From Solirubrobacterales bacterium (GTDB taxonomy: Bacteria; Actinomycetota; Thermoleophilia; Solirubrobacterales; 70-9): 46,047 nt of DNA. The notes under the pieces were generated by a model. The model made no database searches and was not told where the DNA came from. It was given only the letters and a program-made list of their open reading frames with translations. Positions 27,997 to 44,673 of this stretch are shown here, piece after piece (position 1 is the stretch's first letter; every line of letters starts with the position of its first letter). A program made the position numbers and the translations under genes. The stretch is from NCBI GenBank assembly GCA_020438425.1, contig JAGQUQ010000012.1, positions 1 to 46,047 of the forward strand, given 5' to 3'.

Positions 27997-28317
27997 ATGA
28001 AGACCGCACTCAAAGTCATCGCGATCGTCAGTGCCACGCTGCTCACCCTCGTCTTCATCGTGATCCTGATCCTCGCCACCCGTCCGGCGCTGCTGATGGG
28101 AGTCGGCCCGTCCCGGCTCGCCCACTCGATCGAAAAGGATCAGGGCACCGTGTTCTGCCAGGACCTCCCGGAAGGCTGGCGCTGCAAGAACGTCGACAAG
28201 GGGATCGAGTACGACGTCAACGTGGACTGGATGGGCTGCTGGAAGGCGGAGCCTCGGAACGGTTCGGGCCGGCTCGAAGGCTGCATCGAACTCGGCGACA
28301 TCGTCACCTTCGACTGA
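27997..28317 (+). CDS. Small single-pass membrane protein with four-cysteine domain (family member A)
   Basis: A 106-residue protein I do not recognise. Residues 7-29 form one membrane helix (VIAIVSATLLTLVFIVILIL), and the rest should lie outside the cytoplasm. The outer domain has four cysteines: C54 and C63 in CQDLPEGWRC, C81 in DWMGCWKAE and C96 in LEGCIEL. The same C-x6-W-x-C, WxGCW and GC[IV] pattern occurs in the genes at 30668 and 44224. Two disulfide bonds are likely. The start ATG follows GGCGGAAG. It is placed after the GT-C-like gene, which also has extracytoplasmic cysteines, and may be co-transcribed. Confidence 0.8.
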   Translation: MKTALKVIAIVSATLLTLVFIVILILATRPALLMGVGPSRLAHSIEKDQGTVFCQDLPEGWRCKNVDKGIEYDVNVDWMGCWKAEPRNGSGRLEGCIELGDIVTFD

Positions 28318-28360
28318 GGGTCGATTAACCTCGTAGTACAGGGTTAATTCGCACTCAGCT
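28316..28360. repeat. Copy 2 of the dispersed 45-base palindromic repeat
   Basis: It aligns without gaps to 9785-9829 with 36 of 45 identical positions. Core arms ATTAACC and GGTTAAT are retained around a TCGTAGTACAG loop, and the flanks GTC and CAGCT are also shared. The palindrome is less perfect than in copy 1. It begins at the stop codon of the small membrane protein and ends just before the stop of the convergent GST-N-like gene. The position suggests a terminator role. Confidence 0.75.
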
Positions 28361-28371
28361 CGCGTCAGATC

Positions 28372-28653
28372 TCAGACGCTGGCGTGCTGCTCGGCCCAGG
28401 CGACGATCTCCCGTGAGCCGCTGATCCATTCGCCCTCGTCGGTCTCGAGGGCCGGGACCCACTTGCTGCCTGTTGCGTCCTCCACCCGTTTGCGGCCACC
28501 GGTCTGGAGCGCCCGGGGCAGCGCGCCGAAGCTGCGTACCTTGATCACTTCGGGCTGAAAGTCGGCCTGAAGAAGGGCGTCATGGGCGACCTTGCACGGA
28601 TGCTCGCGGACACCCGGAATCTGGGAGGTACCCCAGCAGACGTATAGCTTCAT
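28372..28653 (-). CDS. Glutathione S-transferase N-terminal (thioredoxin-fold) domain protein
   Basis: A 93-residue stand-alone thioredoxin-fold protein. It opens MKLYVCWGTSQIPG, continues EHPCKVAHDALLQADF (the usual HPC-xxA helix of this small family), then ALPRALQTGGRKRVEDATG, WVPALETDEGEWISGSREI and a final helix AWAEQHASV. No GST C-terminal helical domain is present. Cys6 and Cys20 are the candidate redox residues, but there is no CxxC. The start ATG 28653 has no strong Shine-Dalgarno. It lies 9 bases after the ytoQ-like gene on the same strand, so the two are probably co-transcribed. Confidence 0.82.
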   Translation of the reverse strand: MKLYVCWGTSQIPGVREHPCKVAHDALLQADFQPEVIKVRSFGALPRALQTGGRKRVEDATGSKWVPALETDEGEWISGSREIVAWAEQHASV

Positions 28654-28662
28654 GCGGTCAAT

Positions 28663-29118
28663 CTAACCGGGCAGCTCGCCGGTGACGACGTACCTGAGCA
28701 CCGCCGCAACCTGTTCCGGTGTCCGGGCAGTTGCGCGGGCCGCGGCATCGACTTCCTTCAGGGCGTGGTCGAACTCCTCGTCATGCTGCGTGATTACGGG
28801 CTTGCCGAGGGCCGAGGCGAAGCCGGCATCGAAGGCCGCGTTCCACTGCCGGTACTTGTCGCCGAACCGGACCACCACCACATCGGCTTCCTGGATCAGG
28901 GTCTGGGTGCGGATCGAGTTGACCCCGGCCCCCTTGTGGTCGGCCCAGAACTTTTTCTCTTCCCCACCGAGCGTGCTGGTGCCGGCCGCATCCGAGGCCG
29001 GGTGGTCGGTGACCGGGGCGGTAAAGGTGACCGGCAGACCTTCGCAGGACTGCTCGACCCGGTCCCTCCAGTCGGAGTGGATTTCACCTGCCAGGTAGAC
29101 CTTCCATTCGCGCGCCAT
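28663..29118 (-). CDS. ytoQ: YtoQ family protein
   Basis: A 151-residue protein matching the YtoQ family, which is related in fold to nucleoside 2-deoxyribosyltransferases. The opening KVYLAGEIHSDWRDRVEQ, the segment FTAPVTDHPASDAAG, the nucleotide-like FWADHKGAGVNSIRTQTLI and ADVVVVRFGDKYRQWNAAFDAG are characteristic. The length equals that of the family, about 148-150. The biochemical function is not established. It is the first gene of a two-gene unit with the GST-N-like protein and starts about 80 bases from the end of the SRP RNA. Confidence 0.9.
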   Translation of the reverse strand: MAREWKVYLAGEIHSDWRDRVEQSCEGLPVTFTAPVTDHPASDAAGTSTLGGEEKKFWADHKGAGVNSIRTQTLIQEADVVVVRFGDKYRQWNAAFDAGFASALGKPVITQHDEEFDHALKEVDAAARATARTPEQVAAVLRYVVTGELPG

Positions 29119-29199
29119 GGAAAGAAAATAATGGACCGTGCAACCGCCTTCGAAAGAAAGTCATCGGGCGTGTCCGTCGAGTTCGGCTCGGGTTAGGCT

Positions 29200-29403
29200 G
29201 ACCCGCGGCACCCGTAGTTTCCGCTTAAGGCTGCTTCCTTCCGGACCTGACCTGATTCACGGGCTTGCGTCGCGCGGGACCTGACCGTCAACACCTCCCT
29301 CGGTGTACTGACCCCGATGGCCAGATCCTCAGTACGGCATTCGGCCTTGCTAAAGCGGATTGCAAGTGACAGGGCACCGCTGACTCCCCGCCTAGCACGG
29401 TCC
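29200..29403 (-). ncRNA. ffs: Signal recognition particle RNA, large type with Alu domain
   Basis: The minus strand carries the universally conserved SRP helix 8 sequence GGUCCGGAAGGAAGCAGCC (29247 to 29229). About 110 bases 5' of it lies an Alu-type domain: GUGCUAGGCGGGGAG at the 5' end, then GUGCCCUGUCACUUGCAAU with a UGUNR motif (UGUCA, 29371 to 29367), and UCCGCUUUAGCAAGG. This matches the layout of the large bacterial SRP RNA. The length is about 200 bases. The 5' end is set from a -10 box TAGGAT (29416 to 29411). The 3' end, near the CGGGUCAGCCUAACCCG segment, is approximate to within about 10 bases. It guides co-translational membrane targeting with Ffh. Confidence 0.9.
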
Positions 29404-29410
29404 GGTCGGA

Positions 29411-29416
29411 ATCCTA
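29411..29416 (-). promoter_or_regulatory. -10 box of the SRP RNA gene
   Basis: TAGGAT on the minus strand (29416 to 29411) lies 7 bases before the predicted SRP RNA 5' end. No convincing -35 hexamer is seen 16-18 bases upstream. The remaining bases up to 29626 show nothing else I can support. Confidence 0.45.
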
Positions 29417-29626
29417 GCGATCGGAGGAAGAACTGTGGGCCGAGGACCCCGGATCAGGGGCCAAGCGTGAACCCGAAGTGAACGTCGCTGGGCGCGGGTA
29501 CACCCCCGGCAATCTGGGAGAACATGGTGATCAGGGGCCGGCCGACAGGGCTACGGGAGGGCCGGTGTCGGAACAGGTGGTGGGCGGGTCCGCAATTGAG
29601 CATCCGAGATCGGTAGAGGACCAGGC

Positions 29627-30493
29627 TCAACAATCAGCGAGCGAGTTGGCGTAGAACGCCAGGTACTCGTCCCAGTGGGCGTTCCAGTAATCCTCGTCGT
29701 GGCCGCCCGGCCAGTCCAGCTCTGCGATCGCATCAGCTCCGGCCGCTTCGAGCGAGCCGGCCAGCTCGGTGACCCCGGGAACGAACGGGTCCCTCCTGCC
29801 GGCATCGAGGAACACCTGCTGGGAAGAAAAAGCATCGGGATCGGCCGCTGCGGTCGCCAGCACATCGTTCTCCGCGAAATCCTCTGCGTCGTCAAAGGCC
29901 CCCGGAGCCGACTCGCCGCCGCTCAGAAAAAGTGCCGGCGAGTGACCGCCGACCGCGCAGAACATGCCCGGGTTCTTCATCGCCAGGTCGAGCGCCCCGA
30001 AGCCGCCCATCGAGATCCCTCCGACCGCCACCCGGTCCGGGTCGGCGCCAAACTCTTCCGCCATCTGCGGAATCACCTCGTCGGTCACGAAGCTGCCCCA
30101 ATCGCCACTGGCCCGGTCATGCCAGTAGCTGGAATCGCCACCGTCGGGGAAGACCACGATCGGCGCTTCGTCACCCTGATCGGCCAGGGCCTGGAAGAAC
30201 TCTTCGTCGTTCGTGTAGCTGCCGTCATCACCGCTGCGACCGTGGAGGAAGACCAGCATTCCCCGCTCGCCTTCACCGGCACCGTCCGGCACGACCACCG
30301 AGACCGGATGCTCACCGGGCACCGCCTTCGACTCGATCGAGGTCTCGGTCACCTCGGCGCCGTGGGTGTTGGTTCCGAGCAGGTTGATCAGGCCTGTTGC
30401 CGCCCAAAGCAGAAGCCCGACTGCGCCAACCGCCAACACGCTGGCGATCAACCTCCTCCGGGCGACGCTGTGCCTGCGGTCTCTCGCTCTCAT
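29627..30493 (-). CDS. Membrane-anchored or secreted alpha/beta-hydrolase esterase
   Basis: A protein of about 288 residues. An N-terminal arginine-rich stretch is followed by a hydrophobic segment (LIASVLAVGAVGLLLWAATG), acting as signal anchor or signal peptide. The catalytic domain is an esterase D/antigen-85-like alpha/beta hydrolase with the oxyanion segment MLVFLHGRSGDDGSY, the nucleophile elbow VGGISMGGFGALDLA (Ser in GISMG), Asp in DAGRRDPFVPG and the final His in WPGGHDEDYWNAHW. Start ATG 30493 gives the typical positively charged N-terminus; a TTG at 30520 is in frame. The closing helix YLAFYANSLADC ends in Cys. The substrate could be an acyl ester or glycolipid. Confidence 0.85.
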   Translation of the reverse strand: MRARDRRHSVARRRLIASVLAVGAVGLLLWAATGLINLLGTNTHGAEVTETSIESKAVPGEHPVSVVVPDGAGEGERGMLVFLHGRSGDDGSYTNDEEFFQALADQGDEAPIVVFPDGGDSSYWHDRASGDWGSFVTDEVIPQMAEEFGADPDRVAVGGISMGGFGALDLAMKNPGMFCAVGGHSPALFLSGGESAPGAFDDAEDFAENDVLATAAADPDAFSSQQVFLDAGRRDPFVPGVTELAGSLEAAGADAIAELDWPGGHDEDYWNAHWDEYLAFYANSLADC

Positions 30494-30560
30494 CGCCCTG
30501 AAAACTAGACCCTGCCCCAAACGACAGGAGATTCCTGCCCCATTTACAATGCCCGCTCCC

Positions 30561-30632
30561 GGGCGCGTAGCTCAGCGGGAGAGCGCTCGCTTCACACGCG
30601 AGAGGTCGCTGGTTCGAAACCAGCCGTGCCCA
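30561..30632 (+). tRNA. tRNA-Val (anticodon CAC)
   Basis: A complete 72-base cloverleaf. Acceptor GGGCGCG pairs with CGTGCCC (one G-U), D-arm GCTC/GAGC, anticodon arm CTCGC-TTCACAC-GCGAG with anticodon CAC at 30593-30595, and T-arm GCTGG-TTCGAAA-CCAGC. The discriminator base is A, and CCA is not encoded. It reads GUG valine codons, which are abundant in this high-GC genome. Confidence 0.97.
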
Positions 30633-30667
30633 TCGGTTCGAGCAAGGCAACTACGAATGGAGTCTCC

Positions 30668-31183
30668 TTGATCGTGGACTTTCTCTGGCTCATCCTCTAC
30701 ATCCTTTTCTACGGCCTCCTGATTGCCTATCTCGTGGCTCTGATCCCCGCTGCCGTGCTGATGGCGCGTCGCAAGGCCTGGGCCTATTTCGCAGCAGGTT
30801 TCGTAACGTTTGGCCTGGCCTGGTTCGTTGGCGCCATTCAGGTCGTCGACTTTTCCAAGCGCTCGATTCTGATCGGTTGCGGCGCGGTGCTGCTGGTCGG
30901 TTTCTTCGCGACTTTCCCTGTCCTGTTGACCGGCGTTCAGCCCGGGCCCTTGCAGTCTTCGGTCGGCGGATTCATGGACGAAAGGGACGAATGCAAGCCG
31001 AAGGGGGATGACTGGGTCTGCTGGTCATACGACAACTCGATCAGCGGCAGCCGGCCGTACCTGGTCGACGTCGGCTGGGATGGTTGCTGGGAAGCGACGG
31101 CTATCCGTCGCAAGTGGGAAAGTCCGGGCTCGATCGGTGAACCCGAAGTTTCGGGCTGTGTAACCCTGATCCACTACTTCTGA
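30668..31183 (+). CDS. Three-helix membrane protein with four-cysteine domain (family member B)
   Basis: A 171-residue protein with three hydrophobic helices (LWLILYILFYGLLIAYLVAL, WAYFAAGFVTFGLAWFVGAI and ILIGCGAVLLVGFFATF), followed by an outer domain of about 75 residues. That domain has C109 and C118 in CKPKGDDWVC, C140 in GWDGCWEA and C164 in SGCVTL, the same spacing as the genes at 27997 and 44224. The start is TTG 30668, 5 bases after GGAG; the frame upstream runs into the tRNA and is not used. GC content is lower than around it. The 3' end overlaps the end of the convergent protease gene by 10 bases. I do not recognise the family. Confidence 0.78.
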   Translation: MIVDFLWLILYILFYGLLIAYLVALIPAAVLMARRKAWAYFAAGFVTFGLAWFVGAIQVVDFSKRSILIGCGAVLLVGFFATFPVLLTGVQPGPLQSSVGGFMDERDECKPKGDDWVCWSYDNSISGSRPYLVDVGWDGCWEATAIRRKWESPGSIGEPEVSGCVTLIHYF

Positions 31184-32934
31184 AGCTTGGTCTTTCTTCC
31201 GTAGCGGAGGGCGGCGTCGTTGAAGCGGTCGAGGCGGAGTGAGCCCCAGCCCGAGGCCATGTCGTAACCCGGCCTGGCCTTGAAGAAACCGACTGGCTGG
31301 TTGTTGGAAAGGGGCGGGTTGATCGCGGTGCCGACGTCATTGTCTCCGACGGTGACATCCCTGATGATGCGATTTCGCGCCTTCGAATTAGCGATCCGGT
31401 AGATCAGCGGATTGGCGAGGCCGATGTTCGGCTGGCCCCGGCGAGCCGCAGCCTGGTTGGCGAGCGCGAAGCCCGCCGCCATCAGCGGGGTCGAGGCCGA
31501 GGTGCCGCCCACGGTCATCCAGCCGGCCGGCGACTTGATCAACTCGCATTCCGGACTGGTGCAGTAGATGACGTAGCCGGGACCGGGGTCGGCCAGGGCA
31601 CTGATGTCGGGAACCCGGCGCTGGCTGCTGCCGTGGCCAGTCCGCTGCCACCACGGCGCGCCGTAGAGCATCGAGATCCCTCCCGAACCACCGCCGACGA
31701 CCTCCGGCGAACCGTTCCAGACCCACTGGCCGGTGAGCTGGTTCTGTGGGCTAAGCGACATGTTGGTGCCGCCGACGGCAGTCACCCAGGGTGAGGTAGC
31801 CGGGAACTGCGCCGAGAGGATCGGGTACACGCCCGGGGCCTGCGGGCTCGAGCTGCGGCAACCGCTCGAACCGGTGTCACCGGTCGCCACGAAGGTCGAG
31901 GTGCCCGTGCCGCTGGCGAGGATGAACAGGGTGTTCAGCATCTGGACCAGCGACGGGGTCTCGATTGCCGTGTTCTCGCAGCCGGCGATCGAGATCGAGA
32001 TGATGTCCGGGACCAGCTTCGGCTTCGCCAGCGCGGCCGCCATAGTGAGGACCGGGTTCAGGTTCTCGTAGACATCGATCGACTTCAGTCCGGGTGCGGC
32101 GGCCGAGAGGACCTGGATGTCGAGTGTGGTCTCCGACCCGGAGGGGAAAGGCTGCGGCATCTGGACTGGAATAGTCCTGATCGGCGGCAGCTTATAGCCG
32201 AAGCAATCGACGAAAGTCGTGATGTCATTCGGGCGGAACCCGTCGATCTCGATGAAGGCGACCCGCTGCCCTTTGCCGGTCAGGCCCCGTTTGTGGAGGG
32301 CCTTGAGCCCGTAGGCGTTGATGTACTGGTTCGGGGTGAACCCCGGGTTGTTGGGGGTCCGCTCGGCGTTCACTCCGTCCGGGCAGCCTTTGGGGGTGCC
32401 GGTCCGGGTCGTAGCCGACTGGTTGACCGACGGATCGGTGGCAGAAAGCAGTTCGGGATCGGCCTGCGCCGTGTAATCGGGTCCGTCGGTGGAGTAGACC
32501 GCGGCCTTCACGATCCCCTCGAGCTCGGGCGGTACCGCGAGCCCGCTGCTCGAGGCCGACGAGTTGCTGCGACTGGTCGTTGGCGCGAAGGCCCGGCTGA
32601 TCGCGGCCGAATCTCCGCTCACCGTTGCGAAGACCCCTGATGGGTCCACGGTTGCCTCGAGTCCATTCGATTTCGCCCAGCGGACGGTCGCCGCGCGGGC
32701 CTTCTTCGAGGGACCGAAGCGGGAAACCATGCGCCGCACGGATGCGAACTGCCGGTAGTTCCTCGATGCCGGATTCGAAACCGAGCTCACGAACTGCTTG
32801 AGACCCTTCGAGTAGCTCATCTGGAGCAGCACCTTGTTCGACGGACTCTGGGCCGTCGCCGGACCCGCACCGACAGCACCGGCGACAAGCATGGTCAGGA
32901 CAACAGCAACGATTCCCCGCAAATCGATCGACAT
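31174..32934 (-). CDS. Secreted sedolisin (S53) family serine-carboxyl peptidase
   Basis: A 586-residue exported protease. The signal peptide (GIVAVVLTMLVAGAVGAG, then ATAQ) ends near residue 29. The prodomain, about residues 30-175, includes SNPASRNYRQFASVRRMVSR, like other S53 proproteins. The catalytic domain has Glu268 and Asp272 in SETTLDIQV (E-x3-D), the oxyanion Asp353 in ATGDTGSSG and the nucleophile Ser479 in GGTSASTPLM. The calcium site is at IIRDVTVGDND and GYDMASGWGS near the C-terminus. Such enzymes work at acid pH outside the cell after self-removal of the prodomain. A -10-like TAGTCT lies 7 bases before ATG 32934, suggesting a leaderless mRNA. Confidence 0.94.
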   Translation of the reverse strand: MSIDLRGIVAVVLTMLVAGAVGAGPATAQSPSNKVLLQMSYSKGLKQFVSSVSNPASRNYRQFASVRRMVSRFGPSKKARAATVRWAKSNGLEATVDPSGVFATVSGDSAAISRAFAPTTSRSNSSASSSGLAVPPELEGIVKAAVYSTDGPDYTAQADPELLSATDPSVNQSATTRTGTPKGCPDGVNAERTPNNPGFTPNQYINAYGLKALHKRGLTGKGQRVAFIEIDGFRPNDITTFVDCFGYKLPPIRTIPVQMPQPFPSGSETTLDIQVLSAAAPGLKSIDVYENLNPVLTMAAALAKPKLVPDIISISIAGCENTAIETPSLVQMLNTLFILASGTGTSTFVATGDTGSSGCRSSSPQAPGVYPILSAQFPATSPWVTAVGGTNMSLSPQNQLTGQWVWNGSPEVVGGGSGGISMLYGAPWWQRTGHGSSQRRVPDISALADPGPGYVIYCTSPECELIKSPAGWMTVGGTSASTPLMAAGFALANQAAARRGQPNIGLANPLIYRIANSKARNRIIRDVTVGDNDVGTAINPPLSNNQPVGFFKARPGYDMASGWGSLRLDRFNDAALRYGRKTKLQK

Positions 32935-33019
32935 GAGCCTGAGACTACTGACCCACATGACGGCGATTCGCGGAGATAATGTCCGGGATCGAGAGTCGAA
33001 CCCGCGGGAGGAGGCGCAG

Positions 33020-34465
33020 ATGGAGGAAGCGGATGTGGTCGTGGTCGGATCCCGGCTTGCCGGTTGTGCCGTCGCGGCTCCCATCGCCCGCTCAGGCCGC
33101 AAGGTGATCGCGATCGACCGGATGACCTTCCCCTCCGATCAGCTTTCGACCCACCTTCTGACCACAACCGGGGTTTCCGAGATCGCGAAGATGGGAGCCC
33201 TGCCGCGGGTGCTGGAAACCAATCCGACCATAGTCAGCAAGGCGACCTTCGTCTGCGAGGGCATCCCCTGCACCGAGCGCCTGCGACCAGCCGACGACGG
33301 AACCGACTTCGGCCTCTGCGTGCCGCGCGACCTTCAGGACATCTGTCTGGTCGAGGCCGCCCGCGAACAGGGGGCCGAAATCCGGGAGAACTGCGTCTTC
33401 GAGGACCTGATCTGGGCCGGCGGCCGGGTCGCCGGCATCCGGTACCGGGACGAAAACGGCGAAGCGCGCGAAGTCCGGGCGACGCTGACCGTCGGCGCCG
33501 ACGGGCGACGTTCCAACGTGGCCGCGAGAGCGGGAGCCTGGACCCCGTACCGGATGTCGAAGAACGGGCGCGGGCTCGTCTTCCGCTACATGGATGACCC
33601 GAAGATGGGCACGAAGGACGCCGAGACCTTCATCGTCTGGCGCGAGAACAAGAGCATGGCCTTCGCCTTCCCCTCGGCCCCGGTCGGCAAGCTGCTGGTC
33701 CTGTTCATGGGGCACAGGGACGAGGTCTCGACTGCCCGCAAGGACCCCGAGGGTTACTGGCAGGCGAAGCTCGACCAGCACCCGAGCATGAAGCAGCGGG
33801 TGTCGAGAGTCGATGCCGACAGCCTGACCAAGGTTCGCTCGACCGGTGATACCCCCGCGTTCTTCCGGGCTTCCTCCGGTCCGGGCTGGGCGCTGGCCGG
33901 TGACGCCGGCCACTTCAAGGATCCGGTCACCGGCCAGGGGATGCGCGACGCGATGTGGATGGGCCGCACCCTGGCCGAAAGCGTGATCCCCCATCTCGAC
34001 GATCCGGCCGGAGTCGACCAAGCGACCCGGCAGTGGGAAGCCGACCGGGACCGGCATTGCCTGCCGGCCTACCACACGGCAAATATCGACACGCGGATCG
34101 AGACCCAGTCGGCGGTGATGCGCGAGATCTTCCGTGATGCCGGTCGAAACGAGGAATCGGACCTGAGCGACATCTTCACCCGGCACCGCACCCAGCAGGA
34201 AATCGTGGGGCCGCGACGGATGACCAGAGCGCTGGCCCTGGCCCTGATCCGCGGAGACCAGCCGCGGGGCGAGACGATCTCCCGATCGATCAGGGACCTC
34301 CGGACCGAGGTTGCGGTCCGGCGCGAAATCCGGGCCGATGAGTTCCGGGGGACCGGGACCATCAAGGGCTCCGACCATCCGGGCGTCGAGTGGCCGGCTC
34401 CGCCATCTGGCGGCAGCGGGGGCAAAGTCCGGACCGGATCCGAATCGGCGGAGATCCCATCCTGA
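33020..34465 (+). CDS. FAD-dependent oxidoreductase / monooxygenase-like (geranylgeranyl reductase-like superfamily)
   Basis: A 481-residue flavoprotein. The FAD-binding N-terminus is ADVVVVGSRLAGCAVAAPIA, where Ser replaces the middle Gly of GxGxxG, as is common in this subgroup. The second FAD motif is WALAGDAGHFKDPVTGQGM with the conserved Gly-Asp, and the middle DG motif is LTVGADGRRSNVA. The size and order match p-hydroxybenzoate hydroxylase/geranylgeranyl reductase relatives. ATG 33020 follows a strong GGGAGGAGG; a GATAAT -10 box (32973-32978) precedes it. The nitrilase-like gene overlaps its last four bases, so the two act in one operon, perhaps in catabolism of a nitrogen-containing compound. 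The substrate is unknown. Confidence 0.88.
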   Translation: MEEADVVVVGSRLAGCAVAAPIARSGRKVIAIDRMTFPSDQLSTHLLTTTGVSEIAKMGALPRVLETNPTIVSKATFVCEGIPCTERLRPADDGTDFGLCVPRDLQDICLVEAAREQGAEIRENCVFEDLIWAGGRVAGIRYRDENGEAREVRATLTVGADGRRSNVAARAGAWTPYRMSKNGRGLVFRYMDDPKMGTKDAETFIVWRENKSMAFAFPSAPVGKLLVLFMGHRDEVSTARKDPEGYWQAKLDQHPSMKQRVSRVDADSLTKVRSTGDTPAFFRASSGPGWALAGDAGHFKDPVTGQGMRDAMWMGRTLAESVIPHLDDPAGVDQATRQWEADRDRHCLPAYHTANIDTRIETQSAVMREIFRDAGRNEESDLSDIFTRHRTQQEIVGPRRMTRALALALIRGDQPRGETISRSIRDLRTEVAVRREIRADEFRGTGTIKGSDHPGVEWPAPPSGGSGGKVRTGSESAEIPS

Positions 34466-35490
34466 CCCGGATCGCCGTCATCCAGCCGGCTCTCGCCCTG
34501 GGCGAGGTCGAGGCCAACCTCGTCCGCATCGAGGAACTGATCCGCGACGCCCACCGTGAACACGACCCCGATGTGATCCTCGTTCCCGAAGGCTGCTCCT
34601 CGCCCAACGTGTTCGCGAGGGTTCTCCTGGGTTCCGCGCGGCCGATCGACGGCCAGCCCCTCCGGCTGCTGGCCGGGCTCGCCCGGGAACTCGGCTGCCT
34701 GATCGGTGGCGGCTTCGTCGCGGTCCGGGGCAAGGACACTTTCGGGACCTATGTCCTGGCCGAACCGGACGGATCGACCCACCTCCATGACAAGGACATC
34801 CCCACCGCCTGGGAGAACAACTACTACCGGCGTGGCGACGACGAAGGCGTGATCCACTCGAACTCGCTCGGTTGCGAGGTCGGCCTGATGTCCGGTTGGG
34901 AATGGGCCCGGAGCGGAACCTCCCGCCGGGTACGCCAGGCCGGGGCGAGAGTCGTGCTCGGCGGGATGTGCTGGCCGTCGATGCCGACCAACTGGCCGGG
35001 TCCGCTCAAGCTCCTGACCTCGCGGGAACACCGGATCTGGAAACAGCAGGCCCGGGCCCTCCCCGGTCAGGTCGCCCGGATGACCGGGGCACCCGTTGCG
35101 ATCGCTTCCCACGTCGGCCCGATCACGGGTGAGACGCCGCTGGTTCCGGGGCTCTCCTGGCCGACGACGATGATCGGCGAATCCCAGATCTGCGACCGGG
35201 ACGGCACCGTCCTCGCCCGGCTCTCGGAAGAGGACGGTGAGGGGCACATCTGCGCCGAGGTCGAGCTCGCGGAGCCAGCGCCGAGCGAGAGCATTCCGGA
35301 CCGGTTCTGGATTCCGAAGATGACCGCGGTGACCCATGTCGCCTGGCATGCGATGAACACTCACGGCTTCCTCAGCTACAGGATCCGCCGGGCCCGCAAG
35401 GGATTCCCCTGGCAGGACTGGCCCTCCGGCGACCTGCCGGACGAGATTCCGGCATCCGACCCCGCCGATTACCCGGTCGCGACTTCCTGA
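34462..35490 (+). CDS. Nitrilase/carbon-nitrogen hydrolase superfamily protein lacking the usual catalytic Cys; probable CTG start
   Basis: A protein of about 342 residues with the nitrilase fold. It starts TRIAVIQPALALGEVEANL, the Glu of the triad is in DVILVPEGCSSPN, and the Lys is in LHDKDIPTAWENNYY. Where the family has ICWE or ICYE, this protein reads GLMSGWEWARSG, so Gly occupies the Cys site. A Cys lies about 20 residues later in VVLGGMCWPSMP. It may be a pseudoenzyme or a subgroup with a moved nucleophile. No ATG, GTG or TTG fits the start. CTG 34462 overlaps the upstream stop as CTGA, and GGAG lies 8 bases before it, so translation is probably coupled to the FAD oxidoreductase. Confidence 0.83.
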   Translation: MTRIAVIQPALALGEVEANLVRIEELIRDAHREHDPDVILVPEGCSSPNVFARVLLGSARPIDGQPLRLLAGLARELGCLIGGGFVAVRGKDTFGTYVLAEPDGSTHLHDKDIPTAWENNYYRRGDDEGVIHSNSLGCEVGLMSGWEWARSGTSRRVRQAGARVVLGGMCWPSMPTNWPGPLKLLTSREHRIWKQQARALPGQVARMTGAPVAIASHVGPITGETPLVPGLSWPTTMIGESQICDRDGTVLARLSEEDGEGHICAEVELAEPAPSESIPDRFWIPKMTAVTHVAWHAMNTHGFLSYRIRRARKGFPWQDWPSGDLPDEIPASDPADYPVATS

Positions 35491-35508
35491 CCAGTCGAGG
35501 GCCCCGGC

Positions 35509-36747: not shown

Positions 36748-36862
36748 AGCGGCCTCCAATGCGCGTGGACATCATGACCAGAGAACCCTTTCCAGTGCGA
36801 GAGTAGCGCTCGATTCGGGTAATCAGGTGTGAAAACCAGTAGAAAACCACATCGGGTTTGAC

Positions 36863-36892
36863 GGTACTTTCGGGATAGGAAAGGGTTTGAAG
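36863..36892 (+). promoter_or_regulatory. Bipartite motif GGTACTT-N17-TTGAAG upstream of the second delta-60 gene
   Basis: GGTACTT (36863-36869) and TTGAAG (36887-36892) are separated by exactly 17 bases. The same two elements with the same spacing occur at 39320-39349 before the next gene, while the spacers differ. This looks like a promoter for an alternative sigma factor or an activator site. Here the second half lies 7 bases before the ATG, so the transcript would be nearly leaderless. No good Shine-Dalgarno is at the right place. Confidence 0.5.
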
Positions 36893-36899
36893 CAAGCGT

Positions 36900-39293
36900 A
36901 TGAAGCGCAATCACAGACAGCACCACACCGGCGCGATAGCCGGATTGCTGTCGCTGGGGATCGTCCTGCTGCTTTCGTTCGCCCCGGGGGCCGCGGCCCA
37001 GGGGATCGGAAGTTTCGGATTTGGAGATTTCGCCCAGGAGCAGAACTGGATCGAGTCGGCCCCGTTGCCGGATGGCTCGACCTATCTGCTGACCGGAACA
37101 CCGTTCAGACTGGTCAGGATCGGCGCCGACGGCAACCCGGACGCTTCCTTCGGCAAGAACGGCGAGAAGCGGCTGGCGACCACGATCGGCGGACGGGAAG
37201 TCGAGTGGCGAGATGTCTTCGCAGCTCCGGATCGCGGGGCGATCCTGATCGGCTCGACCGGTATGGGGACGGAGTTCGCCGTGATCAACCGACTGTTGCC
37301 CGACGGCAGGCAGAACAAATCGTTCGGTGCCCCGGGACCCGTCTTCCAGACCGACTTGAGATGGGAAAACGGCACCGTGGACGCTTCCGGCAGGATCCTG
37401 CTCGCTTCGTCGTTCGAGACGACAGTGGCCAGACTGAAGCCTTCCGGAGCGCTCGACACCAGTTTCGGAACCGGAGGATTCGCGCGGTCCGACCTCAAGT
37501 TCTCTTACTCCTCCAGCTACCCCTACGGGATGTCTGCCGGAAACCAGGGCATCTATGTCGTCTCGTACGAACGCACCTACAGGCTCACTTCCGACGGACA
37601 TCTCGACCTGTCGTTCGGCGGCGGCGACGGCTGGGTCGGCCGAGGCGGAATCCGGGTCGACGAGATGCAGGACGGAGTGATCATCCAGAGCTGGAACGGG
37701 CATGTCGAGAGGCTGCTCGGAGACGGAACTCCGGATACCTCTTACGGGAGCAACGGCACCGCCTTCGGCGGCGCCGCCAACCAGGGAATCGGAACACTTC
37801 TGGAAGACGGTTCGCTGATCTTCATCTCTCCCAGAGGAGACGAGAGCGATCGCCTATACGACGTGACCCGGCTCGGCCCGGACGGAGAACCGGACCCGAA
37901 CTTCGCCGGTGACGGCAGGCTGGAAGCCGACTGGCTGGACGGGACCCGCACCACCCAACTCTGGACGATCCCCGGCAAGGGTGCCGCACTCTGGGGAAGC
38001 CAGGAAGGACAGGGGCTGGTCCGGGTGGTTGACGGCGATGGCAACCTCGACCCGGGTTTTGGCAGCGGAGGAATCGCTTCGATCCGCACCCCGCTTCTGC
38101 CCGATGCCGACCTGACCGACTCGGGGCAGCGGAAGGACAAGACCGTCCTGACGGTTGGATCCGTGGCCGAGGTCGCGAGACACAACTTCGGGGTCGTCGT
38201 CGCTTCCTTCGGACGAAACGGCAAGCCGGAGCCACGGTTCGGGGACCGGGGAAGGCTGGTGCTGGTCAAACCTTCTTTCAGGACAGATTCCCGCCCGAGG
38301 CTGACCCTGCTTCCCTCCGGTGGAGCGATGATCTGCGCCAAGGCAGGATCTGCGTCGCTGGTCTGGAAGATCGATCGCAACGGGAATCCGGACAAGGGAT
38401 TCGCCGAGGATGGCCGGCTCGTGCTGCCCTTCTCGAGCCGTTGCGACGACATTTCATTCGACGGTACGGGCGCGGTACTGGCCGCGATGGAGGTGAGTGA
38501 TCGGCGCGGAGTGGACTTGATCCGGATCAGGACCAATGGCACCCTCGACAAGGGTTACGGAGTCGATGGCATTGCCGAGCGCACACCAATGGCCGACGGT
38601 GATTTCTACTGGGCCTATGGTTCGAGGCTCCTGACCGACCGGAAGGGACGGACGCTGCTGATTGCTTCCCGGGGGGACGCGCGCTATATCTCGCGCTACA
38701 CACGGAAGGGGTTCCCCGACGAGAGCTTCGGCTTCGAGGGAAAGATCCACTTCGGACTTGATTCCGTTTCTCAGGAAAAGGACGGGCAGAAGCCGATCTA
38801 TCTGCGGGGCCTAGGCTCGATCAGGGGCTTCGCCTTCGGACCCGGGGGATCGATCTACCTGACCGGCACTTACGCAAAGCGGGCCTTTGTCGCGAAACTG
38901 AACTCACGCGGATTCCCGGTCAAGCGCTACGGAAAAGGCGGGGTGGTAATCCTCCCCGAATCGGGTGAAAGCCAGAAGCCCTTCCAGCGCCGCGAAGTTC
39001 ACGCCAGGGCCTACGGAATCGCGGTCCGGCCGAACGGCAGCGTGATCGTCACCGGAGTTTCCCGCCCGACCTGTAGCGAGCCCTGGGGTTGCTCCTACCC
39101 GTTGATGCTGAAGCGGGTGAAACCGAACGGAAAGGTGGACAGCCGTTTCGGCGCATGGGCCTACCGGTTCGTCAAGGAGAAGCCGGACGCGACCGGGAAG
39201 TACGTCCACTTCGCCGGCAAGCGGATCGTGGTCACCGGCTCGATCAGTTTCGCCATCGAACGCAGAAACTTCATGCTTGCGCGTTTCCGTTGA
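36900..39293 (+). CDS. Secreted delta-60 repeat beta-propeller protein, long form 1
   Basis: A 797-residue protein. The signal peptide is residues 1-34 (AIAGLLSLGIVLLLSFAPGAAA, ending AQG). About 13 delta-60 repeats follow, such as PDASFGKNGEKRL, LDTSFGTGGFARS, LDPGFGSGGIASI, PEPRFGDRGRLVL and LDKGYGVDGIAE. Two cysteine pairs are shared with the two following paralogues: one spanning CAKAGSASLVWK to SRCDDISFDG, and TCSEPWGC near the C-terminus before PLMLKRVKPNGKVD. The protein ends FMLARFR without an anchor motif. ATG 36900 is the only well-placed start. It is probably a tandem duplicate of the next gene. Confidence 0.87.
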   Translation: MKRNHRQHHTGAIAGLLSLGIVLLLSFAPGAAAQGIGSFGFGDFAQEQNWIESAPLPDGSTYLLTGTPFRLVRIGADGNPDASFGKNGEKRLATTIGGREVEWRDVFAAPDRGAILIGSTGMGTEFAVINRLLPDGRQNKSFGAPGPVFQTDLRWENGTVDASGRILLASSFETTVARLKPSGALDTSFGTGGFARSDLKFSYSSSYPYGMSAGNQGIYVVSYERTYRLTSDGHLDLSFGGGDGWVGRGGIRVDEMQDGVIIQSWNGHVERLLGDGTPDTSYGSNGTAFGGAANQGIGTLLEDGSLIFISPRGDESDRLYDVTRLGPDGEPDPNFAGDGRLEADWLDGTRTTQLWTIPGKGAALWGSQEGQGLVRVVDGDGNLDPGFGSGGIASIRTPLLPDADLTDSGQRKDKTVLTVGSVAEVARHNFGVVVASFGRNGKPEPRFGDRGRLVLVKPSFRTDSRPRLTLLPSGGAMICAKAGSASLVWKIDRNGNPDKGFAEDGRLVLPFSSRCDDISFDGTGAVLAAMEVSDRRGVDLIRIRTNGTLDKGYGVDGIAERTPMADGDFYWAYGSRLLTDRKGRTLLIASRGDARYISRYTRKGFPDESFGFEGKIHFGLDSVSQEKDGQKPIYLRGLGSIRGFAFGPGGSIYLTGTYAKRAFVAKLNSRGFPVKRYGKGGVVILPESGESQKPFQRREVHARAYGIAVRPNGSVIVTGVSRPTCSEPWGCSYPLMLKRVKPNGKVDSRFGAWAYRFVKEKPDATGKYVHFAGKRIVVTGSISFAIERRNFMLARFR

Positions 39294-39319
39294 GCCGGTT
39301 CAGTTTCTTTCGCGTCAGC

Positions 39320-39364
39320 GGTACTTTTCTTTCCCGACCGGTTTTGAAGAACGCTGCAGCGTTC
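39320..39364 (+). promoter_or_regulatory. Second copy of GGTACTT-N17-TTGAAG, followed by a 16-base palindrome
   Basis: GGTACTT (39320-39326) and TTGAAG (39344-39349) repeat the motif seen at 36863-36892 with identical spacing. The perfect palindrome GAACGCTGCAGCGTTC (39349-39364) follows at once and could be an operator at the transcription start or a short stem. The ATG is about 50 bases from the second half-site, with its own GAAGG Shine-Dalgarno. Confidence 0.5.
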
Positions 39365-39399
39365 TGCCACAGTCCAGTCCCACCAAAGAAGGAAGGCGT

Positions 39400-41739
39400 A
39401 TGAGGCGCAGTCTCGCGGTTCTTTTCGTAGCTACCGGCCTTCTGCTGAGCGGATTCTGCGCGGTCGCCCAGGCCGTTCCCGGCGGGCTGGACCGCAGCTT
39501 TGGCGAACTGCCCGGCCGCACAACCCTCGACGGCCCCAGGTCAGAGAAGAACCGGACTCCGGCGAGCTCGATAACGCTCGGGGACGGTTCAACCGTCTGG
39601 ATCGGTTCCAGGTACTACGAGCGCTCGATTCTCACCAAGCACCGTCCGGACGGCAGCCAGGCGACCGAATTCGGTGACCGCGGAACGGTTCTGTTGCCAC
39701 TGGTCGGCAAAAAGGCCTACTTCGGCTGGGGATTGGCCCGGCAGGACGACTCGATCATCACACTCAGCTACGGCAGCGACGACGCACAGCGGTCTGTATC
39801 GCTCGAGCGTCGCGACGGAATCACCGGGGAACGCGACCCCTCTTTCGGCACCGGAGGTGTGGTCGGGTTTGACTTCAGCGACAAGCTGGCCACCTATCGC
39901 GACCCCTACCCAATGATGCTTGACGTCGACCCGGCCGGGCGTATCTACGTGGCGGCCAGCGACGGAAGCTTCAACAGCGACCGGGCTGTGGTCCGATTCA
40001 CCCCGGACGGGAAGCTCGACAAGTCGTGGGCGAAATCGGGTGTTCTGACCATCCACCAGAGCGGATGCCAGCGGTCGCCAACCGGCATCAGCCTGACCCC
40101 GCTCGGCCTTTACGCCTACTACGACGACTGCTACCGCCGGTACGACGAAACCGGCACCCTCGACCAGACCTTCGGACTCAACGAGAACTTTTTCTTCGGT
40201 CATTCCGGGCTGGTTCTGCCCGGCCCCGCCAGCACGATCTATATCGCCCTGACCCGGGACAACGGCTCGGTCCAGAGCGTGGTCCGGGTGAACGAGAACG
40301 GAACGGTCGACACATCCTTCGGCGACAACGGCCGAGTCACTCCGGAGATCGGAGACGAAGAAGTCGGCAACCTGGCGGTCGACCAGGCCCACCGGGTGAT
40401 CCTGACCGGGGGTGCCGACCCGGAAGAGCTGGATCCGAACATCGAGGTCCTTCGTTTCACCACCAATGGGGATCCAGACCCCTCGTTCGGCACGGCCGGC
40501 GTGGCAAGTTTTGACTCCGGAGGCGAGGAGTCCGCGCGACCGGTGGCTTCGCCTGTTCCGGGCGGACTGGTGCTTCGAGCCGGCGGGGTAGCCACGAGGC
40601 TTGACGAAGGGGGCGTTCCCGACCCTTCTTTCGGATCTGGCGGAACCCTCGAGTTCACCGCTTTCATGCCTCCCGAAGACCGGGTCCTCGACACGATCAC
40701 CCTGCCCGGAGGCGGCACCCTTGCGGCCGGCCTTTCTGACGGACAGGCGGCCTTCGCCAGATTCAAGCCCAACGGCAAGATCGACTCGGGCTTTGGCGAA
40801 GGAGGCCTTCTGACAGTTCCATCGACCACAATCGATCGTCAGGACAAGGCGACCTATGTCAGCCCCTCCACCGACGGAAGTTTCGTGGCCTGTCTGGACA
40901 CCCCGGTCGGCGTGGTAGTTGCGAAGCTGAGACCAGGAGGCAGCCTCGATCCTGATTTCGGCAATGACGGAACTGTGCGAGTCACCGGAATGACCAGGTG
41001 CGGGGGAATTGGAGCGGTGGCCGACGGGACCCTGGTCGGCGGAGTCTGGAACCAGAACTATGTCGTGCTCCGTCTAACCCCTGACGGGAAGTGGGACAAG
41101 ACCTACGGCAAGGACGGCTGGGCCTGGGGCCCCGAGGCCAACTGGTACCAGCCGAAACTGGCATTCACCACTTACCCCGATGGCAGCTCGCTTGTTTCCA
41201 GTTCCCGCGAGATCGCGAAGTTCAAGGCCGACGGCACACCCGACAGGAAGTTCTCCCGCGACGGCTCGACCAAATTGCCAGAAGCCGACATGCGCTTCCC
41301 GATGTCGATCCTGGTCAACAAGAAGGGTCAGATATATGTCGGTGGCCGCGGCTCTTCGAACCCGGTTATCTACAGACTCACGGCCAGTGGCAGATGGGAC
41401 CGAAATTTCGGCTTCCGCAGCGTGAGGGTCCTGCGCAACCCCAAAAGCTCGGTCCGGCCCACGGACTTCAAGCTCCAACGAGACGGCAAGCTCGTTTTCG
41501 TGGCGACCGCCCGGTCGAGGGAATGCCGCGTGGACTGCGGGAAGATATGGCTGTACAGACTGAAGGCAGACGGGAGCTTCGACCGGAAATTCGGCAAACG
41601 CGGAGTCGCCGAAGCCAGATTCGGAGCGAACACCACCGGTGATTCGGTGAGCCTTTCCCGCAAGGGGATCGTGGTCGGAGGACTGGCCGAAACGGGTGAA
41701 GGTTTCGACGACATGCTCCTGGCGAGGTTCAAGCGATGA
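39400..41739 (+). CDS. Secreted delta-60 repeat beta-propeller protein, long form 2
   Basis: A 779-residue protein. The signal peptide SLAVLFVATGLLLSGFCAVAQA is followed by about 14 delta-60 repeats (LDRSFGELPGR, RDPSFGTGGVVGF, VDTSFGDNGRVT, PDPSFGTAGVAS, IDSGFGEGGLLT, LDPDFGNDGTVR, FDRKFGKRGVAE). Conserved cysteine pairs are at SGCQRSPTG with YDDCYRRYD, at ACLDTPVG with MTRCGGIGA, and at ECRVDCGKIWLYRL near the end. The first of these is shared only with the next gene. ATG 39400 with GAAGG upstream is chosen; in-frame sequence further up overlaps the previous gene and is not signal-like. It ends DDMLLARFKR. The next gene starts inside its stop codon. Confidence 0.88.
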   Translation: MRRSLAVLFVATGLLLSGFCAVAQAVPGGLDRSFGELPGRTTLDGPRSEKNRTPASSITLGDGSTVWIGSRYYERSILTKHRPDGSQATEFGDRGTVLLPLVGKKAYFGWGLARQDDSIITLSYGSDDAQRSVSLERRDGITGERDPSFGTGGVVGFDFSDKLATYRDPYPMMLDVDPAGRIYVAASDGSFNSDRAVVRFTPDGKLDKSWAKSGVLTIHQSGCQRSPTGISLTPLGLYAYYDDCYRRYDETGTLDQTFGLNENFFFGHSGLVLPGPASTIYIALTRDNGSVQSVVRVNENGTVDTSFGDNGRVTPEIGDEEVGNLAVDQAHRVILTGGADPEELDPNIEVLRFTTNGDPDPSFGTAGVASFDSGGEESARPVASPVPGGLVLRAGGVATRLDEGGVPDPSFGSGGTLEFTAFMPPEDRVLDTITLPGGGTLAAGLSDGQAAFARFKPNGKIDSGFGEGGLLTVPSTTIDRQDKATYVSPSTDGSFVACLDTPVGVVVAKLRPGGSLDPDFGNDGTVRVTGMTRCGGIGAVADGTLVGGVWNQNYVVLRLTPDGKWDKTYGKDGWAWGPEANWYQPKLAFTTYPDGSSLVSSSREIAKFKADGTPDRKFSRDGSTKLPEADMRFPMSILVNKKGQIYVGGRGSSNPVIYRLTASGRWDRNFGFRSVRVLRNPKSSVRPTDFKLQRDGKLVFVATARSRECRVDCGKIWLYRLKADGSFDRKFGKRGVAEARFGANTTGDSVSLSRKGIVVGGLAETGEGFDDMLLARFKR

Positions 41740-44144
41740 AGGTTCGGGCAGGAAAGTTCGTGGTCGCGTTCATCGCGGCGATCGGGGTCCTGACCGGCGG
41801 GGCGGCTTTGCCTGCGGCATCCGCGGCCCCCGGGGATCTCGACATCTCCTTCGGAACTTCCGGCGGCTACACGGCCACCGACGGCGGCATCTCGACCCTG
41901 AAGTCGGGCGGATTCTGGCCGATGCTTACCTTCGGGGACGGCTCGTACATCAGCGCCTACGGGAGTGTCCTCAGCCGCCGGAACGCCGACGGAACGCCCG
42001 ACACCGGCTACGGCCAGGGCGGCTTCCTGTACCTGCCGCCCCACGACCGGCGGACCACCTATGTCTCCGGCATGAGCCTGCAGGGTGACTCGACCATCGT
42101 GCTCTCGAACGGCACGGAGGGCAATCAGGGCACCATCTACCTGGAGCGCCGTGACAGCGGGACCGGAGCGATCGACCCGGCTTTCGGCACCGGTGGTCTG
42201 GTCCGGTTGACCACGGGGCAGCTGCTTTCCGAATTCGACGGTCCGATGTGGACCGAGGGACTCGATATCGACGCCAGCGGGAGGATCTACCTCCTCCTGC
42301 ACCAGAGCGAAGCTCTGGCTGACGGCTTCGTGGTTCGGCTCACCGCAGACGGCGCGGTCGACAAGACCTTCGGAGACGAAGGAACGCTCGATTTCTACTC
42401 GGGAACCTGCGGCTACCCGACTGGCCTGACGGCGAGGCCGGAAGGCGTCTACGTGGTCAGCCAGCAGTGCGTCAAGCGCTTCAGCCTCGACGGAAGTCCG
42501 GATCCTTCCTTCCAGCAGACGCCCCTGAACGAGCGCCAGAACCTGAGGGGCATCATGGACGAGCCGGGACCGGGCCTCCTGGTCGAAGGCTACGACGCAC
42601 CCAACCCGGGCCTCTCGGTCTGGAAGCTGAACCCGGACGGCAGCCTCGATGGAAGCTTCGGCACCAACGGCAAACTCACGACCTTCGATCCGAATGTCCA
42701 GTACTGGGGTCTCGACCGTGATTCGGAAGGCCGGTTCTACGCGACCGGCGACACGAACTTCAGCCCGGGCCACTACGTCGTTGCCAGGTTCACCGCCACC
42801 GGCGAGCGGGACCTGGGCTTCGGCACCAACGGCAAGGTCCAGACCCCGCAGGATCCGGCCAACCCCAACGGCACCCTTTACCGGGTTGTGGACGGACCGG
42901 CCGGACTGCTCGTTTACGGCGACGCCGAATTCGTGGTCGGAAGCCGGGTGTTCAGCATGCGGCTGCTCGACGACGACACCTACGACCCCGATTGGGGCGA
43001 AGGCGGCAAGTACTGGTTCAGCACACTCGCCCCGAGGTCGGACCGGATCAACGACATCGCCAGGACCGCCGACGGCAAGACCCTCGCTACCGGTGCCTCC
43101 GGTGACCAGCCGATCGTGGTCCGGTACCTCGCCAACGGCAAGCTCGACCAATCCTTCGGCGATCAGGGCCAGGTCCGGATCGAAAGCCTCTCGCAGTTCG
43201 GCGACTCCGGCGAGAAGATCGCGGTGACCGGCACCGGTGATGCCGTGGTCTGCGTGACCGGCCAGGGCATGGGATCCGTGCTGCGGATCGATGACGACGG
43301 GCAGACGGTTTCGGGATTCGGCGACGGCGGTCGCTTCCGGGAATCCGACATCTTCGGAAAGCGGTCCTACTTCAACCGTTGCGGCGGGATTTCCGCCGCT
43401 CCCAAGGGGCGGATCCTGGTCGGTGTGTCGCTCTACAACGGATCGCCCGCCGTCTTCAGGCTGAAGGCGAACGGAAGCGTCGACCCGGCCTTCGGCAAGG
43501 ACGGAATCACCAAACTGAAGACTGACAATCCGGACTATCTGAGTCCGGTCACCTTCAGCGGGATGAAGGACGGGCGTTCACTGATCGCCTCGCCAAGCAG
43601 CCTGGTCCGGCTCAGGACTGACGGCAAGCGGGATCCGAAGTTCGCCAGCCGGGGCGTGTTCGACCTGACCCCCGGCAGCAGGAAGATCCTGCCCAAGCCG
43701 CGGGCGATCGCGGTCTCGTCAAAGGGTGCCGTCTTCGTCGGCGGGTCCGATGACGAGAACATGATCCTGGTCAAGCTCGACAAGTCCGGGCACCCGAGTC
43801 GCCGGTTCGGCAAGCAAGGGGTCCTGGGGATCGAACACCCGAAGTTCACGACCCAGATCAACGACATCGCGTTCCGGCCCGACGGCCGGGTGCTGCTCGC
43901 GGTGACCGGCGCCCAGGATTGCTGGAACTTCTCCGACTGCAAGGACAACCTGCTCGTGTACCAGCTCGCCGACCGCGGCCGGCCGGATCGCACCTTCGGC
44001 AGAAACGGGCTCGTGAACCGGCTGATCGGCGTGAACACAAGGGCGAACTCGCTCGAGTTGACCGGGCGCGGGATCGTGGTCGGCGGCTTCACGGAATCGG
44101 AAACGACCAGTGAAGACCTGCTGCTGCTGAGACTCAAGCGCTGA
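41736..44144 (+). CDS. Secreted delta-60 repeat beta-propeller protein, long form 3
   Basis: An 802-residue protein. The signal peptide covers residues 1-32 (FVVAFIAAIGVLTGGAALPAA). About 14 delta-60 repeats follow (LDISFGTSGGYT, IDPAFGTGGLVR, VDKTFGDEGTLD, LDGSFGTNGKLT, LDQSFGDQGQVR, VDPAFGKDGITK, PDRTFGRNGLVN). Cysteine pairs match those of the preceding protein: GTCGYPTG with SQQCVKRFS, VCVTGQGMG with NRCGGISAA, and DCWNFSDCKDNLLVYQL. ATG 41736 overlaps the upstream TGA (ATGA), so the two are translated together. The C-terminus EDLLLLRLKR is like that of the upstream paralogue. No anchor motif is present. Confidence 0.88.
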   Translation: MKVRAGKFVVAFIAAIGVLTGGAALPAASAAPGDLDISFGTSGGYTATDGGISTLKSGGFWPMLTFGDGSYISAYGSVLSRRNADGTPDTGYGQGGFLYLPPHDRRTTYVSGMSLQGDSTIVLSNGTEGNQGTIYLERRDSGTGAIDPAFGTGGLVRLTTGQLLSEFDGPMWTEGLDIDASGRIYLLLHQSEALADGFVVRLTADGAVDKTFGDEGTLDFYSGTCGYPTGLTARPEGVYVVSQQCVKRFSLDGSPDPSFQQTPLNERQNLRGIMDEPGPGLLVEGYDAPNPGLSVWKLNPDGSLDGSFGTNGKLTTFDPNVQYWGLDRDSEGRFYATGDTNFSPGHYVVARFTATGERDLGFGTNGKVQTPQDPANPNGTLYRVVDGPAGLLVYGDAEFVVGSRVFSMRLLDDDTYDPDWGEGGKYWFSTLAPRSDRINDIARTADGKTLATGASGDQPIVVRYLANGKLDQSFGDQGQVRIESLSQFGDSGEKIAVTGTGDAVVCVTGQGMGSVLRIDDDGQTVSGFGDGGRFRESDIFGKRSYFNRCGGISAAPKGRILVGVSLYNGSPAVFRLKANGSVDPAFGKDGITKLKTDNPDYLSPVTFSGMKDGRSLIASPSSLVRLRTDGKRDPKFASRGVFDLTPGSRKILPKPRAIAVSSKGAVFVGGSDDENMILVKLDKSGHPSRRFGKQGVLGIEHPKFTTQINDIAFRPDGRVLLAVTGAQDCWNFSDCKDNLLVYQLADRGRPDRTFGRNGLVNRLIGVNTRANSLELTGRGIVVGGFTESETTSEDLLLLRLKR

Positions 44145-44223
44145 GCAAGCGGCCCGGCAGATTTCCTTTCATTAGCAGGGATTTCCGGCCTTTCCCGGAC
44201 GGGCGTTCTACTCTGCTCGCGCG

Positions 44224-44673
44224 ATGGACGGCGTAAGCGAAGATTTCAGCGGCCTGCCCGAGTACAAGTCCCGGGGCGAACGGCGTGAGGAACGGCTCGA
44301 CCGGAAGTTCACCGAGCACCGTTCCAACCCCTACCGCGGCCGCCGGACCCGGATCCTGCTGGTCGGCGGGTTCCTGCTCGCGCTCTTTCTTCTGGCCCTC
44401 TCGCTGATCGTCATGTTCGCCCCGACCCCCTACCTGGGAACGAGCCACAGCGCTCTCGCGAACTCGATCGGTGGTTCGGACGCAAACGACTGCCGGCCCG
44501 CCGGCAGCAACTGGATATGCACCGAGGGTTCCGGGGCCTCGATGACCCGCTATGCGGTGAAGATCGACTGGGCCGGCTGCTGGAGCGGTCAGCTGATCGG
44601 ATCAGCCGGCAGCGGCGCCGACCGGAAGATCTCCGGTTGTGTGGCGATCATCGATCACCTCAAAGCTGACTGA
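44224..44673 (+). CDS. Single-pass membrane protein with four-cysteine domain (family member C)
   Basis: A 149-residue protein. The first 42 residues are charged and cytoplasmic (YKSRGERREERLDRKFTEHR), one membrane helix follows (ILLVGGFLLALFLLALSLIV), and then an outer domain of about 80 residues. The outer domain has C90 and C99 in CRPAGSNWIC, C119 in DWAGCWSG and C139 in ISGCVAI, the same pattern as at 27997 and 30668. SALANSI before the first Cys also matches SRLAHSI of the protein at 27997. A TACTCT -10 box (44209-44214) is 9 bases before the ATG. It follows the delta-60 cluster by 79 bases and could belong with it. I do not recognise the family. Confidence 0.82.
   Translation: MDGVSEDFSGLPEYKSRGERREERLDRKFTEHRSNPYRGRRTRILLVGGFLLALFLLALSLIVMFAPTPYLGTSHSALANSIGGSDANDCRPAGSNWICTEGSGASMTRYAVKIDWAGCWSGQLIGSAGSGADRKISGCVAIIDHLKAD

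What the first reader, a model, noticed from the sequence alone, without database searches (positions are those of the whole stretch)
27997..44673. Three scattered membrane proteins share an unrecognised four-cysteine outer domain
Genes at 27997-28317, 30668-31183 and 44224-44673 have unrelated membrane parts (one, three and one helix) but the same C-terminal pattern: C-x6-W-x-C, then Y-x-V-x-[VI]-x-W-x-G-C-W, then G-C-[IV]. The first Cys pair has identical spacing in all three. Two disulfides on the outer face are likely. Three copies in 46 kb suggest a family expanded in this lineage, possibly working with the surface repeat proteins.
Basis: partly seen in the sequence, partly recalled or inferred. 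Interest (0 to 1): 0.62.

Follow-up and report, generated by a model that had tools for sequence, protein, structure and literature searches.

The report
Paralogous four-cysteine membrane-anchored exported domains
Three small membrane proteins in this uncultured actinobacterium are real duplicates of one uncatalogued family, each carrying the same small outward-facing domain held by two predicted disulfide bonds; the family is genuine, but its job is unknown and it looks dispensable.

Summary
Genes at 27997-28317 (ONE), 30668-31183 (TWO) and 44224-44673 (THREE) share one C-terminal domain. A profile built only from genomes outside the genus finds all three at E 3e-15 to 4e-13; the next hit in the window is 0.14. 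Pfam and NCBIfam have no model for them. All 39 aligned relatives keep four Cys plus the Trp after the third. AlphaFold models of THREE (domain) and TWO (full length) show the same strand order, with Cys 1/2 and 3/4 at facing positions of neighbouring strands. No solved structure matches well.

The family occurs in 12 of 54 Solirubrobacterales genera searched, in single-TM, multi-TM, zinc-ribbon, lipoprotein and ABC-permease-fused forms. ONE, TWO and THREE arose by local duplication within the genus at one syntenic locus, so 'expanded in this lineage' is right. Partnership with the propeller repeat proteins is not supported: they adjoin THREE in only 3 of 7 genomes. ONE sits behind a GT-C-like transferase in 9 genomes, but 8 others keep that gene without it. 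The nearest named family, DUF4333, is only weakly linked. Best guess: a non-enzymatic, disulfide-stapled exterior binding or accessory module.

The parts
27997..28317 (+). gene ONE, 106 aa: one N-terminal transmembrane helix (about residues 7-28) and the C4 domain; 18 bases after the upstream GT-C-like gene
28108..28314 (+). C4 domain of ONE as found by the profile
   Evidence: E 5.6e-26, but the training set included it; leave-out profiles, E 1.8e-13 (outside genus) and 7.9e-10 (THREE relatives)
30668..31183 (+). gene TWO, 171 aa: three predicted transmembrane helices (residues 2-32, 38-59, 64-82) and the C4 domain; follows tRNA-Val
30941..31180 (+). C4 domain of TWO (Cys 109, 118, 140, 164; Trp 116, 137, 141)
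44224..44673 (+). gene THREE, 149 aa: 43-residue basic N-terminus (MDGVSEDFSGLPEYK...), one transmembrane helix, C4 domain
44449..44670 (+). C4 domain of THREE; AlphaFold model, pLDDT 77.8, pTM 0.67
26461..27978 (+). conserved neighbour of ONE: multi-TM protein with weak matches to EpsG and PMT_2 (GT-C-like glycosyltransferase)
30561..30632 (+). tRNA-Val (CAC) immediately upstream of TWO
36900..44144 (+). three DUF5122 beta-propeller repeat genes upstream of THREE; not conserved next to THREE
44694..45371 (-). CHAP-domain protein, convergent with THREE; conserved neighbour

Best explanation
ONE, TWO and THREE are three paralogues of one uncatalogued family: membrane-anchored proteins whose C-terminal domain of about 75 residues (helix, five-strand antiparallel sheet, short helix) lies outside the cytoplasmic membrane and is stapled by two structural disulfides, Cys1-Cys2 across the first beta-hairpin and Cys3-Cys4 joining strands four and five. 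The domain is most likely not an enzyme but a small extracytoplasmic binding or accessory module, attached in different lineages to different anchors (single helix, helix bundle, zinc-ribbon protein, lipoprotein, ABC-2 permease). In the window's genus a copy behind a GT-C-like transferase gene was probably duplicated locally to give TWO and THREE. Shown: homology, distribution, Cys/Trp invariance, synteny, duplication. Inferred: topology, disulfide pairing, direction of duplication. Guess: the binding/accessory role.
For: Homology: leave-out profile E 2.6e-15, 1.8e-13, 3.9e-13. Four invariant Cys and the Trp after Cys3 in 39 rows, 24 of them mutually under 50% identical. Same secondary-structure order in two separate AlphaFold models; in both, residue numbers place Cys1 opposite Cys2 (28/37 with hairpin 31/34; 109/118 with hairpin 112/115) and Cys3/Cys4 at the first residue of strand 4 and the end of strand 5. 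ABC-permease homologues of other actinobacteria (L156, L157) keep Cys1-Cys2 but lack Cys3 and Cys4 together, as expected for two separate disulfides. The genome encodes two VKOR proteins and a DsbA-like protein side by side, the oxidising pair known from actinobacteria. Outside location: basic cytoplasmic side in THREE and in the TWO orthologues of G004 and G012; lipoprotein relatives. Duplication: THREE clade 95/97, TWO clade 99/96, G003 single copy in the ONE position.
Against: No functional evidence of any kind. ONE-type sequences do not form a resolved clade, so the order of duplication is inferred from synteny. In window TWO the positive charges of loop 1 (ARRK) are stronger than those of loop 2, which read alone would put the domain inside. 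The alignment was partly gathered with a four-Cys pattern, which inflates Cys invariance, although the strong profile hits inspected also had four. Model coordinates could not be measured, so Cys-Cys contacts are read from strand positions only.
Confidence: 0.6

Rival explanations
1. The proteins are accessory subunits of the GT-C-like envelope glycosyltransferase, ONE being its dedicated partner and TWO and THREE later copies.
For: ONE or its single-copy form lies directly behind this gene on the same strand in all nine genomes of the genus that have it.
Against: Eight genomes of the genus keep the transferase with no C4 gene behind it; YtoQ follows instead in four of them. In other genera the family sits beside unrelated genes: lepA and PAP2, POT transporter, recG, DUF892.
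Confidence: 0.15
2. The domain is a member of DUF4333, with a second disulfide added.
For: One four-Cys lipoprotein relative (L023/L052) matches PF14230 at E 0.0009; profile comparison of the lipoprotein group with a DUF4333 alignment gives E 4e-4; same layout of helix, Cys pair and strand after a lipobox or TM.
Against: That hit scores 19.9 bits against a cut-off of 27. The main and combined families against DUF4333 give E 0.066 and 0.006 with probability under 7%. None of ten further relatives hits it.
Confidence: 0.3
3. The four Cys are a redox centre or metal site rather than structural disulfides.
For: Four invariant Cys and an invariant Trp could suit either.
Against: No CxxC pair; eight residues lie between Cys1 and Cys2 in the window proteins, and Cys3-Cys4 are well apart; Cys3 and Cys4 are missing together in the ABC-permease outgroup while Cys1 and Cys2 stay.
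Confidence: 0.1
4. The shared pattern is chance convergence of small Cys-rich tails.
For: The matching pieces are short and the rest of the proteins differ.
Against: Leave-out profile E-values and syntenic orthologues.
Confidence: 0.01

Closest known systems
DUF4333 (Pfam PF14230), exported domain of actinobacterial lipoproteins and single-TM proteins
   Same: Exported, anchored by a lipid or one helix; helix, then a Cys pair, then strands; a DUF4333 protein is listed among surface proteins of M. abscessus (PMC11925935) and ML1334 of M. leprae is listed as Sec-exported with one TM helix and DUF4333 (PMC8040911). Function also unknown.
   Different: DUF4333 has only the first Cys pair and no GCW...GC part; sequence link weak.
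C-terminal exterior domain of ABC-2 permeases (PF12730) in other actinobacteria, loci L156 and L157
   Same: 32% identity to the four-Cys domain of permease L133; first Cys pair with W-x-C.
   Different: Second Cys pair absent (GRF, DGLV); fused to a permease.
YpmB/PepSY-like exported domains (PDB 2gu3)
   Same: Small anchored exterior alpha/beta domain; VIA-align Z 3.1, rmsd 2.5 over 53 residues.
   Different: A Z this low is uninformative; no sequence link.

Membership tests
DUF4333 (PF14230) | profile match above the gathering score | tested here: not met
   0 hits for the three window proteins at E up to 10; best relative 19.9 bits against a cut-off of 27
DUF4333 (PF14230) | conserved Cys pair after the helix | tested here: met
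   Cys1-Cys2 present in all members and in the DUF4333 alignment
DUF4333 (PF14230) | same fold | not tested
C4 family defined here | four Cys, Trp after Cys3, Gly before Cys4, behind an export anchor | tested here: met
DUF5122 propeller partner | conserved neighbourhood with THREE | tested here: not met
   present in 3 of 7 genomes
GT-C accessory subunit | co-occurrence with the transferase | tested here: not met
   transferase without a C4 gene behind it in 8 of 17 genomes
GT-C accessory subunit | same-strand adjacency | tested here: met
   9 of 9 genomes that have ONE

The most novel reading that the evidence does not exclude
A previously undescribed extracytoplasmic domain family of Thermoleophilia, stapled by two disulfides and mobile between anchors (helix, lipid, zinc ribbon, permease), acting as a common sensory or regulatory ectodomain for membrane proteins, with a fold not seen among solved structures.
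Probability: 0.25. Interest if true: 0.5.

Novelty: new variant of a known kind. Interest (0 to 1): 0.32.

Why it matters
It adds a clear, buildable domain family (profile, conserved residues, orthologous groups, architectures) where Pfam and NCBIfam have none, and gives predicted disulfide pairs that can be tested at once. It also gives a small case of local duplication at a fixed locus (dnaX to pdxH) in uncultured Solirubrobacterales. It does not change any pathway known today.

Tried and rejected
Pfam and NCBIfam on the three proteins: nothing relevant. PDB by sequence with the family profile and with DUF4333: nothing significant. Foldseek on both models: no match with E below 0.36; VIA-align best for the domain Z 4.6 (1jju_A 169-250), and Z 4.3 to the same region from the second model, too low to name a fold; the helical part of TWO gave Z 6.5 to a signal peptidase subunit, of the size common for helices. 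Locus L142 looked like a fusion with a POT transporter, but the join cuts both proteins and is probably an assembly or deletion artefact. No relatives in plasmid or phage records with THREE and TWO as queries. Partnership with the propeller genes was rejected on synteny. Papers: nothing functional on DUF4333 or on this family; one paper (PMC12828279) lists DUF4333 under electron transport, citing a Shewanella structure, which I do not rely on.

Full report
1. Observation. The three ORFs lie where stated and carry the stated pattern. In a six-frame reading of the window (618 ORFs of at least 40 aa) the combined pattern occurs three times only. To avoid circularity I built profiles that exclude the window: nine homologues from other genera give E 2.6e-15 (THREE), 1.8e-13 (ONE) and 3.9e-13 (TWO), and the next ORF 0.14. 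Relatives of THREE alone find TWO at 9.9e-16 and ONE at 7.9e-10. The three domains are homologous.

2. What genome. The window is a whole contig (C33) of a 2.57 Mb, 83% complete assembly. Named close relatives are Solirubrobacterales MAGs HKST-UBA64/66/67, '67-14' SCNpilot, SSF62 and SCN18. The genus label '67-14' is my inference from these names.

3. Family. Profiles find the domain in 23 of 61 near relatives, including weak hits, in 28 of 232 genomes and 12 of 54 genera of the order, in 19 of 299 genomes drawn from the class, and in a phylum-wide draw only in the same order (3 of 296). The tool scores a limited number of candidates per genome, so these are lower bounds. Forms seen: single TM (ONE, THREE, and large genomes such as G192), three TM (TWO), lipoprotein (L021, L023, L049-L051, L053), zinc ribbon plus TM (L132) and ABC-2 permease C-terminus (L133). 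In 39 aligned rows, 24 of them mutually under 50% identical, all four Cys and the Trp after Cys3 are invariant. Part of that set was collected with a four-Cys pattern, but the strong profile hits read without the pattern also had four (L048 has an extra pair).

4. Structure. AlphaFold of the THREE domain (33 sequences) gives pLDDT 77.8 and pTM 0.67: helix 13-20, strands 28-31, 34-41, 44-52, 57-63, 73-77, helix 80-86. Full-length TWO (39 sequences) gives pLDDT 83.8: helices 2-32, 38-59, 64-82, then helix 92-100, strands 110-112, 115-122, 127-135, 140-145, 160-164 and a short helix. The order is the same. Both models pick the same weak PDB region (1jju_A about 170-250, Z 4.6 and 4.3). No solved structure is a convincing match.

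5. Disulfides and topology. ABC-permease homologues in other actinobacteria (L156, L157; 32% identity to the L133 domain) keep C...W-x-C but have GRF in place of GCW and DGLV (or DGDV) in place of the GC site: Cys3 and Cys4 are absent together. The genome has two VKOR genes and a DsbA-like gene within 1.6 kb on contig C155, so extracytoplasmic disulfide formation is available. THREE has a basic 43-residue N-terminus before its helix. TWO orthologues in G004 and G012 have strongly basic loops before the last helix, net +4 and +6. Both put the domain outside. Window TWO alone is ambiguous.

6. Locus and history. The order asd-lysC-recR-ybaB-dnaX / GT-C / ONE / YtoQ / SRP RNA / tRNA-Val / TWO / THREE / CHAP / pdxH is conserved in pieces across the genus. 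In G010 all three genes lie in 3 kb; G003 has a single copy in the ONE position. The tree supports THREE (95/97) and TWO (99/96) as clades; ONE is unresolved and G003 falls with it. So the genes were duplicated locally inside the genus, probably from the ONE position. Eight of 17 genomes with the GT-C gene have no C4 gene behind it, and YtoQ follows instead in four of them: ONE is dispensable and the GT-C does not need it. The DUF5122 propellers adjoin THREE only in the window, G001 and G015.

7. Function. Nothing has been measured. Neighbours differ between genera: lepA and a PAP2 protein, a POT transporter directly behind the lipoprotein form in two families, recG and an amino-acid permease near the copy in G192 and its relatives, and ZIP-like and DUF892 genes. 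A domain that changes anchors and neighbours, with no conserved polar catalytic set, fits a small exterior binding or accessory module better than an enzyme. This is a guess.

8. Known families. DUF4333 is the nearest named candidate. One lipoprotein relative reaches E 0.0009 but is below the curated cut-off. Profile comparison is E 4e-4 for the lipoprotein group and 0.066 / 0.006 for the main and combined sets, with low probabilities. The lipoprotein group itself is tied to the main family (E 9.5e-8). I treat DUF4333 as a possible distant relative, not as the family.

Noticed in passing
window 29136-29400 (-): Bacterial large SRP RNA (RF01854, 168.6 bits) between YtoQ and an esterase gene; about 84% conserved at the DNA level beside YtoQ across the genus.
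   Followed up: yes
window 36900-44144 (+): Three consecutive DUF5122 beta-propeller repeat proteins of about 800 aa with overlapping ends, a probable operon; orthologues present at this locus in only some relatives.
   Followed up: partly
window 31174-33102 (-): Pro-kumamolisin-type protease gene that overlaps the 3' end of gene TWO tail to tail by about 10 bases.
   Followed up: no
L133:124-1719: ABC-2 permease whose C-terminal exterior domain is a four-Cys relative; other actinobacterial permeases (L156, L157) have a two-Cys version.
   Followed up: partly
L154:4825-6782, L155:5253-7090, L153:7132-8963: The lipoprotein form of the domain overlaps or abuts a POT-family transporter gene in two different families (transporter 77% identical), suggesting a conserved operon.
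   Followed up: partly
L132:1105-2382: Zinc ribbon, TM and C4-type domain followed by other segments in one 426-residue protein.
   Followed up: no
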